Shown in pieces: positions 30,430 through 40,666 of a DNA stretch of 64,000 nt. Positions within the stretch are counted from its first letter, which is position 1. Each line of letters starts with the position of its first letter. The notes below the pieces were generated by a model. It saw nothing but the letters and a program-made list of their open reading frames with translations. It did not search any database and was not told the origin of the DNA. The DNA lies in assembly GCF_002197845.1 (NCBI RefSeq), contig NZ_NIDE01000001.1, forward strand, positions 1,054,001-1,118,000, given 5' to 3'. The DNA is from Fimbriiglobus ruber. GTDB lineage: Bacteria > Planctomycetota > Planctomycetia > Gemmatales > Gemmataceae. The position numbers and the translations under genes are program-made.

Positions 30430-30840
30430 AGGATCGGTCGAAAGATAAGTTCCCGGGACTCGCGTCCGGGGAACGTTCGCGATCATTCGTTCCCGTCCGG
30501 ACCAGGGCGGCGACCCGCCGATGTGGTCCGGTCCCGCGGAGCCCCCGAGCGGATTGCTCCGCCCCTACGACTCAGACTAATCCCGGCACCGGTGAGACGG
30601 AATGAGACGGAACCTGGGGCTGACCGCCATTCGTTCGTGACGCAGAGTGAACCCGGGGCCGAGGGAATTTCTGCGCTTTTTGCGCCGTGCAACGCGTTTT
30701 CTGGCATTGGGCGGACCAGGACATCACTCCACGGCAAAGTGGTCAGATCAGTAGACCACGCATCGTCGTCGTGCATCGACTTGTATGCGCGAGCCGGGGT
30801 CGATTTTTGCGCGTTTGTGCGTTCGAATCGATCGATCGAA
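30430..30840. repeat. Conserved intergenic element, copy A (about 411 bp)
   Basis: This stretch aligns along its whole length with 40161-40525 in the same orientation. Shared blocks include CGATCATTCG (30480-30489), CTCAGACTAA (30571-30580), a 20-base identical run at 30661-30680, CGGACCAGGACATC (30712-30725), GCATCGACTTG (30773-30783) and TTTTTGCGCGT (30804-30814), with looser sequence between. It fills most of the gap between the stop of the small CxxCH gene and the start of the giant CxxCH gene. A minus-strand reading gives DVLVRPMPENALHGAKSAEIPS, but the reading frame is not kept across the two copies, so it is probably non-coding. Confidence 0.8.
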
Positions 30841-30866
30841 ACGTTCGCGAGAGGCGAGTCCGAGCC

Positions 30867-37405: not shown

Positions 37406-39840
37406 TCACCCGGATTTACTTCCCTTCGGCGGCGGCGGTGCCTGACCGATCTGCGAGCCCGTTGGCGGCGGTAGCGGTTCGGCGTTGTTGCCCGGCGTCA
37501 AGGGTCCCGTGTTCACCGGGCCGCCGGTTGTGGCCGGGGGTGATTGCTTCGCCCCGGAAGTCGAACCCGATGTGCCGCCGGTCCCCGGCCCGGAATCGAC
37601 CATGACGCCGTGCGTGACGATCGGCGGTTGGGCGGCCGGAGGTGGTGGAGGCGTCGGGTTGGAAGGCGGTTGCGAAGTCGGCGGTTGGGCCGCTGGGGGC
37701 ATTTGTGCCACCACCGGCGGAGTTTTCGGTGGGGGCGGCGGCGATTTCGGCGGGGGTGGCAGGGTCACGTTGAAGTTGACCCCGGTGACGTTGGTGTCGC
37801 CGTGTGTGATGGTGATGGTGCCGGGGTTCGGCGACGTCTGCTTGCCTCCGGTCGGCAACACCAGGCTGACGGTATAGTCCCCGGCGGCGCTGACGCCGGA
37901 CGCCACGTCCAGGCTCCCGGCGGGGCCGCTCTGCTGGTTGAAGCTGTAGTGCCCTGCGCCGTCGGTGACGGTCGTGGCCAGAACGTCGCCGCTCGTGTCC
38001 TCGAGTAGGACTTTGATCCCGGGCACGCCCACGGAGCCGCCGGGTGAGCCTTGAGGCTGATTGGCCGGGGGAGGCGCCGTGACGGTCCCGCTGATCGAGG
38101 CCCGGAAGAAGAACACGTCGCTCTGGAGGTTGGTGACGTTCGTGTTCGACTCGATGACCTGGGCCAGCGTCGTGTCTTGATTGAAGATGGACTGTTCTTG
38201 CGGAGAGAACGACTCGTTGAGGTAGAAGAATCGGTCACCACTCCGCAGGCGGACGAACTGGTTGACCATGATCCGCTCGAAGAGCGGACCCACGTCGGCC
38301 CCGGGGACGTGATCTTCGGCCAGACCGCCCTCGAAGGCGTCGATGTTGTTAACCGACCCGTAGGCCGCCTGCAGTTCTTGCTGAACCTGGACGTTGCTGG
38401 TGATCTGGGCGAAGCTCGTGACGCGAGGGAGACCGACCGCCGACCGCAGCGTGTTGTAATCCGGGATGCCGTTGTCACGGTCCCGTTGGACGTCGCGGGC
38501 CATGAGGTCTTGCCCGCCGTCGCCGTAGTTGCCGAAGAGGAGGTTGCGGATGTCGTTGATGGCCATGACGTCCGTGGCCTGGGAATCGCCGTCCGCGTCT
38601 CCCTTGAGGATCGGCCCGATGTCGGACGAGGTGTGCCCGGTGAGCGGGTCGACGACGCCGGCCGGGTTCAACAGGTCCGCGTCGAAGAAGTCTTCCGAGA
38701 GGGGAATCGACGACCCGTCCGCGCTGGCGTCCGCGATGTCGGTTCCCTGGTTGGTTTGCCGCTCGATCGCGCTACTCAACAGACTGTGGCCGAACCGGAA
38801 AGCCACGGTGGAGAACTCGTTGGCGATCGCGGGATTGACATTGGGGTTGTAGCCGGAATAAGGCGCGAGAGCTTGTGAGCCCAGGACGGCGGGAATCCAT
38901 TCGTTGTAAACGATGTCCTGGTATTCCGCGATGTTGATCTTTCGGGCTTCCTGGTAGAGCTGTTCGTCGGTCCAGGTCGGGTTGAGCTTCTGGAATTCGG
39001 CCGCGAGGCGGTTGTGGTTTCGGACGAAGAGCGTCTGGAGGGCGGTCAGTTCCAGATTCTCGTTGCCCCGGATGTCTCCGGTCGCGAACAGTGCGCTCAT
39101 GGACAGGCCACCCTCGTTTTGCTCGCCCCCCTCGGCCGCGTTGAGGGCGGCCAGTTGTTGTGGGGTGAAATACGTCGAGTTGTCGTAGGGCAGCATGTTA
39201 CCCGGGCTCGTCTTGAGCAAGCCGCCCGAGTGTGTGCGGAGCGCGTCGGCCGTGGCCGCGTCCGACCCGTAGATTTGCGACAGGTCGAGGTACGCGGTGA
39301 CGTCCGTTACCTGCTGTCGCGGGTTGCCGACGCCGGTCCCGGTCGAGGGGTCGTACAGCGACCGGGTGAAGGGGAGGGCGTCCGGGCCGATCGGGTCGGT
39401 GGCGGAGACGGTGATCGGGAACGATGCGCCGCCGTCGGGCGTCAGGGACATGTCGTGGTCCATGAACTGGCCGAATGCGTAAGCGAAATCGGACAGGCTC
39501 TGCTGGTCGACGGTCTGGATGTCTTCCGACGGGTCGGCCGGGTCGGCCTGTGAATTCAAGATGTTGCTGATCGCCCGGGCACTCTGGTCCTGGGCAGGGC
39601 GGGGGAACTGACGCCGTCGGCGTACCCGACCGGGGCGAGCCGGATGAGGTCGGTCCCGGCCGTCCCATAGGTCGGGTTGGCGATATTGTTGTTGGTTTCG
39701 TCGATCGATCGCGTGCCGCTCACGGCTGGCACGATCCGGTCGTCGAGCTTTTCGAGCCCGCGCGCGAAAATCTTGGCACGGGTACTCGGGTTCGACGCGC
39801 GGGCGGTCAAGACGTGGCGGAGCCAGTTCTTGGGGGTCAT
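37406..39840 (-). CDS. Animal-type haem peroxidase, secreted (apparent frameshift)
   Basis: The restored protein has about 811 residues. The N-terminus (ATG 39840, AGGA upstream) has LEKLDDRIVPAVSG, the planctomycete LEDRxVP-type secretion/anchoring signature, and NNIANPTYGTAGTDLIRLAPVGYADGVSSP. Reading then has to gain one base at the G5 run (39601-39605) to continue QDQSARAISNILNSQ. The peroxidase core has FGQFMDHD (distal His, calcium) and AFRFGHSLLSSAIER (proximal His). The C-terminus has an SdrD-like beta domain (GVPGIKVLLEDTSGDVLATT) and a proline-rich tail. As written, the full protein cannot be made. The cause is a sequencing error in the homopolymer or a real mutation. Confidence 0.85.
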
Positions 39841-40160: not shown

Positions 40161-40525
40161 AGGATCGACCGAAAGATAAATTTCTGAGAATCCCGTCCGG
40201 CGAACATTCGCGATCATTCGCCACCGTCCGTACCCGCGAATTCCCGAGCGGACCGAGCCGCCCCCTCCGACCTCAGACTAACCGCGGACCCCCGGGTCCG
40301 ACCGCCCGTCGTGACAGGAAGGGGACCGCCGGGACCCCGAAACCGAGGTCCGAGGGAATTTCTGCGCTTTTCGCACCTTGCAGCGTGTTTTCTGACAGTG
40401 GACGGACCAGGACATCCCTGCACGGAAAATTGTCGGCTCCGTGGACCGCGTTCCGTCGACGAGCATCGACTTGCATGCAGGGACCGGAACCGGTTTTTGC
40501 GCGTCCCGCGTTCAGATCGACCGAG
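40161..40525. repeat. Conserved intergenic element, copy B (about 365 bp)
   Basis: Aligns with copy A at 30430-30840 in the same orientation. Matching blocks lie at 40211-40220, 40272-40281, 40352-40371 (20 identical bases), 40403-40416, 40463-40473 and 40494-40504. The main length difference is about 30 bp near 40225, where copy A has an extra GC-rich segment. It lies between the stop of the proline-rich gene (40667) and the peroxidase start (39840), on the same side of the downstream gene as copy A. Confidence 0.8.
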
Positions 40526-40666
40526 AGATTCGGTCCCGAGAATTGAGGCCGAAGAATGTTCCCGACAGGTCTTCCACGTCCTGAATCGGGATGTTAACGA
40601 ACTGACATCGGAAGACTCACGCACTGCCTTCGACCCCGGGGTTCTCGCCCCGAGGGAACCCTCACG

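What the first reader, a model, noticed from the sequence alone, without database searches (positions are those of the whole stretch)
30430..30840. Two-copy conserved intergenic element (365-411 bp) upstream of two large secreted haem-protein genes, copy A
Copy A (30430-30840) and copy B (40161-40525) share at least six ordered blocks over their entire length, including a 20-base identity, with a GC-rich indel and many single changes. Open frames inside are not conserved in frame, so this is probably not a protein. Both copies lie between a minus-strand stop and the start of a minus-strand gene for a large exported haem protein (PVC CxxCH protein; animal-type peroxidase). It could be a structured regulatory RNA, a long promoter/leader, or a non-autonomous mobile element. 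The shared gene context makes a regulatory role worth testing.
Basis: partly seen in the sequence, partly recalled or inferred. Interest (0 to 1): 0.72.

Follow-up and report, generated by a model that had tools for sequence, protein, structure and literature searches.

The report
Dispersed modular non-coding intergenic repeat
The two copies are members of a roughly hundred-strong family of non-coding DNA repeats that sits between genes in this one bacterial genome; the haem genes beside them look like coincidence, but the repeats carry a 19-letter core that has hardly changed while the rest of the element has.

Summary
The repeat is real. Copy A runs 30430-30863 and copy B 40161-40596 (both minus strand), 77-81% identical in the aligned parts, with a 22-base exact block. 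It is not a two-copy element: the window's genome (12.36 Mb) gives 100 matches to a sequence-only core model at E<=0.01, 48 strong (the ~495-nt type of the window) and 52 weaker. The model found one marginal hit in 94 other genomes of the family; exact patterns (85,000 species genomes, viral contigs) and BLAST (plasmids, phages) found no homologue. Copies are non-coding, show no clear folding signal and little covariation, and none of 82 cores lies inside a called gene. Flanking genes are diverse (commonest Pfam family 5 of 125), so the haem link looks coincidental. The element is modular: end modules, 1-3 degenerate ~63-nt tandem units, a 19-mer GGCGCAAAAAGCGCA[A/G]AAA, a variable spacer, a GGTTAGTCT box. 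The 19-mer stays nearly intact in badly diverged copies, also when they are found through the distant box alone. Best reading: a lineage-specific, non-autonomous, BOX/MITE-like mobile repeat whose core is a protein recognition site. Mobility is inferred: no mobilising enzyme, target duplication or empty site was found.

The parts
30430..30863 (-). copy A of the repeat (profile positions 60-496 of 496; left end missing)
   Evidence: nhmmer profile of 10 full copies, L001 hit, E 2.4e-96; L001 position p = window p+28919
40161..40596 (-). copy B of the repeat (profile positions 16-496 of 496)
   Evidence: nhmmer, L030 hit, E 2.3e-119; L030 position p = window p+38840
30668..30686 (-). 19-mer core GGCGCAAAAAGCGCAGAAA in copy A
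   Evidence: pattern search of the own genome, G000:C1:1084668-1084686:-
40359..40377 (-). 19-mer core GGTGCGAAAAGCGCAGAAA in copy B
   Evidence: pattern search of the own genome, G000:C1:1094359-1094377:-
40384..40430 (-). unit next to the core in copy B (47-nt scored part of the ~63-nt unit)
   Evidence: PWM score 40.7; the unit next to the core of copy A scores 25.3
40447..40493 (-). second, degenerate tandem unit 63 nt upstream in copy B (in copy A it falls below the threshold)
   Evidence: PWM score 15.4 at offset -63; 0 of 23,953 positions of shuffled sequence exceed 9
30571..30582 (-). box 2, GATTAGTCTGAG, in copy A
   Evidence: coordinates read
40272..40283 (-). box 2, GGTTAGTCTGAG, in copy B
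   Evidence: coordinates read
30430..30491 (-). right-end module of copy A (..CTTATCTTTCGACCGATCCT)
40161..40222 (-). right-end module of copy B (..TTTATCTTTCGGTCGATCCT)

Best explanation
The finding is a pair of copies of a dispersed, non-coding, non-autonomous repeat (about 495 nt when complete) that has spread through the intergenic regions of this planctomycete genome and is known so far only from it. SHOWN: about 100 places; modular build (left end; 1-3 degenerate ~63-nt tandem units; a 19-mer core; a spacer of variable length; box 2; a right-end module that recurs as a direct repeat near the left end, with weak inverted likeness between the ends); a left boundary after CTNAG-like sequence; intergenic position; strong conservation of the core. 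INFERRED: it was multiplied by a transposase or other recombinase acting in trans on its ends, with insertion tolerated in intergenic DNA, often close behind stop codons; older copies then decayed (most of the 52 weaker matches). The core stays intact because a DNA-binding protein, either the mobilising enzyme or a host factor, recognises it; the short palindrome GCGC-A5-GCGC may be what is recognised. Any effect on haem genes is incidental.
For: 100 matches at E<=0.01 with core model R1, 48 of them above 70 bits. 87 exact matches to the degenerate 19-mer in this genome, none to the reversed control, none in the 94 other genomes of the family. By BLAST only one 33-nt match in 58 related genomes; no homologue in genome contigs and viral contigs by exact patterns or in plasmids and phages by BLAST. 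0 of 82 cores inside a called gene. Left boundary CTNAG in 20 copies (C 13, T 17, A 15, G 19 of 20). The end module recurs near the left end; the ends resemble each other inverted, z 0.9-4.7 in 11 copies. Extra units at -63/-64 in 37 of 42 F1 copies. Three copies have themselves been hit by other insertions.
Against: No autonomous partner with these ends was found. A target-site duplication was not shown (middle base of TNA equal in 7 of 11, permutation p 0.06; whole triplet equal in 2 of 11, p 0.45). No empty site: at ligA none of eight loci from seven related genomes shares the downstream gene. The near-invariance of the 19-mer in badly decayed copies is not what a dead mobile repeat should show. 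The inverted likeness of the ends is weak. None of the three Y1 transposase genes has the element within the ~1.5 kb fetched on either side.
Confidence: 0.7

Rival explanations
1. A host-maintained DNA site: the 19-mer with its ~80-nt box is bound by a chromosomal protein (nucleoid, segregation, termination or repair) and is kept at about 90 places by selection, whatever its origin.
For: Of 37 diverged loci taken from the R1 list, 36 hold the core by a tolerant pattern and the other within 4 substitutions. In 40 such copies the core positions are 88-100% conserved, the neighbouring box mostly 40-80% (AAAC at -13 to -10 and C at -8 reach 90-100%) and the flanks about 30-45% (these copies were selected by the core pattern). 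All 25 matches to the box-2 model at E<0.01, 7 of them not used to build it, have the core within 4 substitutions. Gapless spacing from -53 to +27.
Against: Not found in 94 other genomes of the family, two of the same genus among them, bar one marginal hit. Spacing along the contigs is Poisson-like (CV 0.996 against 0.986 simulated). The mobile-looking end modules and tandem units are not needed for such a site.
Confidence: 0.2
2. A structured regulatory RNA (or riboswitch-like leader) acting on the downstream gene.
For: One short hairpin (GCGC-A5-GCGC) is conserved, and core positions 2 and 5 switch together: same way in 4 or 5 of 5 supported independent pairs, no T..A state among 82. RNAalifold on the F1 alignment beats column shuffles in energy (-14.9 against -0.4). 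In the core alignment the covariation term is slightly favourable (-0.55) and one pair (columns 77-101) is C-G in 14 and A-U in 13 copies, but broken in 12. With RIBOSUM scoring larger structures appear for spacer and box 2 (-46.5 for F1, -22.7 for F2; no control run). Two F2 windows have nominally low z (+80 on the element strand -0.90, SE 0.29; 0 on the other strand -0.81, SE 0.23).
Against: Single-copy folding z is about 0 for the F1 core. The covariation term is unfavourable on the full F1 alignment and near zero for spacer and box 2 by default scoring, where only the short hairpin is predicted; 2 of 16 pairs of the core show any double change. No Rfam match in the window at the gathering threshold; best permissive hit in copy A E 2.5. 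No common gene family beside the copies.
Confidence: 0.05
3. A REP/REPIN-type element moved by a Y1 (RAYT) transposase.
For: Short palindromic core; three Y1_Tnp genes in the genome; another hairpin family of REPIN-like layout is present.
Against: No copy within the ~1.5 kb fetched on either side of the three Y1 genes; far longer than a REP, with its own end modules and tandem units.
Confidence: 0.04

Closest known systems
BrickBuilt MITE of Porphyromonas gingivalis (PMC4596501; abstract and section list read)
   Same: Species-restricted repeat, always intergenic; leader and tail with small inverted-repeat ends round a tandem array; 19 copies in ATCC 33277.
   Different: Its unit is 23 nt without spacers; here ~63 nt, degenerate, 1-3 units. 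Here ~100 places with a 19-mer core far better kept than the rest. No sequence comparison was made.
BOX repeats of Streptococcus pneumoniae (PMC3049150; abstract and section list read)
   Same: Dispersed small repeats of narrow host range (pneumococcus, fewer in S. mitis, a related set in S. suis), judged parasitic by the authors. The boxA-(boxB)n-boxC build is recalled, not read.
   Different: The authors credit their repeats with extensive secondary structures; here no clear folding signal. Sequence likeness was not tested.
REP / REPIN elements with RAYT transposases (recalled; start of the abstract of PMC3733652 seen in a listing)
   Same: High-copy palindromes outside genes.
   Different: No link to a Y1 transposase here; a long modular element rather than a 20-40 bp palindrome.

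Membership tests
MITE (miniature inverted-repeat transposable element) | short, non-coding, many dispersed copies | tested here: met
   ~495 nt, 100 matches; no frame kept: six frames open in 9 to 33 of 42 copies, core lengths mostly 163, 164 or 165 nt
MITE (miniature inverted-repeat transposable element) | terminal inverted repeats | tested here: inconclusive
   left end against reverse complement of right end: z 0.9-4.7 in 11 copies, imperfect
MITE (miniature inverted-repeat transposable element) | target-site duplication | tested here: inconclusive
   TNA-like flanks on both sides; 2 of 11 triplets identical, middle base 7 of 11, p 0.06
MITE (miniature inverted-repeat transposable element) | autonomous relative with a transposase and the same ends | tested here: inconclusive
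   none seen: end model R3 found repeat copies, insertion-split copies and weak solo fragments, but only 150 of 8914 candidates were scored and in the own genome alone
BOX-type modular repeat | end modules round a variable number of tandem inner modules | tested here: met
   1-3 ~63-nt units between distinct ends
BOX-type modular repeat | extensive secondary structure | tested here: not met
   no clear folding signal
BOX-type modular repeat | sequence homology to pneumococcal BOX | not tested
   no BOX sequence was compared
REP/REPIN with RAYT | copies flanking a Y1 transposase gene | tested here: not met
   3 Y1_Tnp genes, no R1 match at E<=10 in their loci
Known structured RNA family (Rfam 15) | covariance-model match | tested here: not met
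   0 gathering matches in the window; best E 2.5 in copy A with the permissive search

The most novel reading that the evidence does not exclude
The 19-mer GGCGCAAAAAGCGCA[A/G]AAA with its ~80-nt box is a functional recognition site that a host or element-borne protein keeps intact at some 90 intergenic places in one planctomycete, spread by a modular repeat and retained after the rest decayed: a lineage-specific, domesticated site network of unknown purpose.
Probability: 0.2. Interest if true: 0.65.

Novelty: new variant of a known kind. Interest (0 to 1): 0.4.

Why it matters
It removes a weak lead (a regulator of haem proteins) and replaces it with a described repeat family of a very large bacterial genome. 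If the constraint on the core reflects protein binding, the ~90 sites give a ready-made test of how a mobile repeat can seed a genome with binding sites. The linked CGCA/TGCG switches in the core may also be a natural record of a small palindrome mutating as a unit.

Tried and rejected
Haem-gene regulator: rejected, flanking genes are diverse. Structured RNA: no clear folding signal, little covariation, no Rfam match; results that lean the other way are listed under that rival. Protein-coding: copies differ by single-base indels; the best frame is open in 33 of 42 copies, the others in 9-25, which I read as chance in a GC-rich genome. Evenly spaced chromosome site: spacing is Poisson-like; a deficit of gaps under 20 kb (9 against 15.2, p 0.033) was one of two measures and is not relied on. 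Autonomous partner: the three long copies are the repeat interrupted by other insertions (IS3-like rve; DDE_Tnp_1; a 538-aa ORF without Pfam match, taken as a transposase from the inverted ends round it), not the source. RAYT: rejected. Cyanobacterial MAG hit L169: lies in an ORF, as codons of a basic C-terminus, so taken as chance. G091 hit (L086, 19 bits): undecided. G035 33-nt hit (L032): no R1 match. Empty site at ligA (L028): no downstream synteny in any of the eight loci returned; the same-genus piece L187 holds the ligA end and no core in its 1.7 kb, but shares no further gene. Stop-codon preference: 11 of 26 ends within 15 nt of a stop against 5.3 expected under uniform placement, 6 against 3.8 within 5 nt, from my own gene caller; suggestive only. 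Ascertainment of the core was checked with box 2 alone; 18 of its 25 hits at E<0.01 had trained that model. Of the 35 further hits up to E 1, five were looked at (four with the core, one without, taken as chance), 30 not; by position 9 of these lie away from any R1 match and I take them as chance. The alignment was misoriented and was redone.

Full report
OBSERVATION. Copies A and B exist and align from end to end; BLAST with copy A finds B at 77% over query 16-201 and 81% over query 352-424. The longest identical run is 22 bases. A 24-base pattern from it, with up to 3 mismatches, occurs twice in the window and never in 100 shuffles. With a profile of ten full copies, A spans 30430-30863 and B 40161-40596, both on the minus strand. 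A lacks its left end, next to the stop codon of the upstream neighbour (30867); B runs about 70 nt further than first stated.

COPY NUMBER AND RANGE. The window lies in G000 (12,363,577 bases, 20 contigs; I recall this size for Fimbriiglobus ruber, no call names it). BLAST with copy A gave 50 matches from 40 scored of 135 candidates. A sequence-only model of the 164-nt core (R1, 42 copies) gave 104 matches at E<=1 and 100 at E<=0.01 from 150 scored of 5611 candidates, so the count may be low; two elements contribute two matches each (one split by an insertion, one with two cores). 48 matches exceed 70 bits (the window's type, here F1); the other 52 score 20-54 bits and match mostly the second half of the model (the diverged group F2, with one half of the split F1 copy). 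The same model in 95 genomes of the family, with stricter filters and at most 30 scored candidates each, found the own genome and one marginal hit in G091 (E 0.004). A BLAST of 59 genomes, the own one included, at most 10 scored candidates each, found the own genome and one 33-nt match in G035. The degenerate 19-mer GGYGCRAWAAGCGCARAWA has 87 exact matches in G000, none for the reversed control, none in the 94 other genomes. In genome contigs one exact pattern found nothing, another one hit inside an ORF, taken as chance. Viral contigs by exact pattern, plasmids and phages by BLAST: none. The own genome may be left out of those collections.

ANATOMY (in the element's orientation, which is the window's minus strand). 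Left end: CTNAG, then GACNGCTCGACGGATNACATCCCGATTC. Right end..CTTATCTTTCGGCCGATCC followed by TNA-like sequence. A 62-nt right-end module recurs as a direct repeat near the left end (model R3), and the two ends also resemble each other inverted (z 0.9-4.7 in 11 copies). Between them lie a ~63-nt unit in 1-3 degenerate tandem copies (a second unit at -63/-64 in 37 of 42 F1 copies, copy B among them and copy A not; extra units in 10 F2 loci; 0 of 23,953 positions in shuffled sequence reach the threshold), the 19-mer core, a spacer of 29-118 nt, and box 2 (GGTTAGTCT..), found by pattern behind 62 of 82 cores (37 of 42 F1, 25 of 40 F2). In F2 the box from -53 to +27 round the core is conserved without gaps.

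CODING AND STRUCTURE. No frame is kept: copies differ by single-base indels and the six frames are open in 9 to 33 of 42 copies. Folding of single copies against dinucleotide shuffles gives mean z from -0.73 to +0.58 for F1 and from -0.94 to +0.06 over F2 windows (34 of 40 F2 cores used; the window at +80 on the element strand has -0.90, SE 0.29, and that at 0 on the other strand -0.81, SE 0.23). RNAalifold energy on the F1 alignment is better than column shuffles (-14.9 against -0.4), a result against my reading, but its covariation term is unfavourable. In the core alignment that term is slightly favourable (-0.55); 2 of 16 pairs show a double change, one of them (columns 77-101) broken in 12 of 42. 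For spacer and box 2 only the short hairpin is predicted by default scoring; RIBOSUM scoring proposes larger structures, for which I ran no control. Rfam: nothing at the gathering threshold in the window, best E 2.5 in copy A.

GENE CONTEXT. With my own codon-usage caller, 0 of 82 cores (one locus holds two) lie inside a gene. The left neighbour runs with the element in 49 and against it in 27 (6 uncalled); the right neighbour in 37 and 40 (5 uncalled); +|+ 25, -|- 15, +|- 22, -|+ 11. 125 of 135 flanking ORFs were scanned: 210 Pfam families, at most 5 members each (first 25 shown); PSCyt2 3 of 125. The haem neighbours of the two window copies are therefore best taken as coincidence. Ends tend to lie just behind stop codons (11 of 26 within 15 nt, 5.3 expected if uniform), in copy L028 directly behind the ligA stop codon. 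Three F1 copies are interrupted by other insertions: an rve transposase, a DDE_Tnp_1 transposase, and a 538-aa ORF without Pfam match between inverted ends.

THE CORE. Of 37 F2 loci taken from the R1 list, 36 hold the core by a tolerant pattern. In the 40 F2 cores so selected, core positions are 88-100% conserved, other box positions mostly 40-80% (AAAC at -13 to -10 and C at -8 reach 90-100%), flanks about 30-45%. Because these copies were selected by the core, I built a model from box 2 only (R2, 18 sequences). All 25 matches at E<0.01 have the core within 4 substitutions, 7 of them not used in training. Up to E 0.03 four of five more have it and one, taken as a chance match, does not; 30 weaker matches were not fetched, of which 9 lie away from any R1 match. 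The constraint is therefore not merely a selection effect, although the copies had been seen by R1 before. At core positions 2 and 5 only CA (64), TG (15) and CG (3) occur among 82, never TA. On an F1 tree built without the core these states change at least 13 times; of 5 supported independent pairs the two positions change the same way in 4 or 5 (mean 4.8, never the other way; sign test p 0.06). CGCA and TGCG are reverse complements, so a hairpin-templated correction, or a need for a palindrome, are both possible; I cannot separate them.

WHAT IT IS. A lineage-specific, modular, non-autonomous intergenic repeat, working like BOX or BrickBuilt elements. Mobility is inferred from number, ends and layout; it is not proved: no duplication, no empty site, no partner. 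Membership in the MITE class stays open for that reason. What keeps the core is unknown; I favour protein recognition.

LITERATURE. Abstracts and section lists of PMC4596501 and PMC3049150 were read; other papers were seen only in listings. None of those listings showed a description of this repeat; that covers open-access PMC papers and these five searches only.

On re-reading the calls I mended the E-value of copy B, the box-2 count (62, not 64), the independent-pair count, the number of related genomes, and added, which compares the ligA loci not compared before.

Noticed in passing
G000, e.g. C1:681946-681994, C4:214235-214283, C17:480747-480800: A second dispersed hairpin, GGCACGTTGGAAACGTGCC: 61 matches with up to 2 mismatches, 0 for the reversed control, by my count 19 of them paired with an inverted partner some 30-110 bp away (REPIN-like layout). 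Six of its places lie within 150 bp of a match to the present repeat.
   Followed up: partly
G000 C5:161105-161443, C14:996599-996937, C17:1002338-1002673: Three Y1_Tnp transposase genes, possible movers of the hairpin family above; none has the present repeat in the fetched flanks.
   Followed up: partly
L170, L171, L172: Three copies of the repeat interrupted by other insertions: a 538-aa ORF without Pfam match between inverted ends, a DDE_Tnp_1 transposase, and an IS3-like rve transposase.
   Followed up: yes
L120 and L111, beside the repeat: A long palindrome with the arm GGAGTGCGGCGCT.. next to F2 copies, perhaps a third repeat family.
   Followed up: no
window 37406-39559: Animal haem peroxidase domain followed by an SdrD_B-like domain in one predicted protein.
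   Followed up: no
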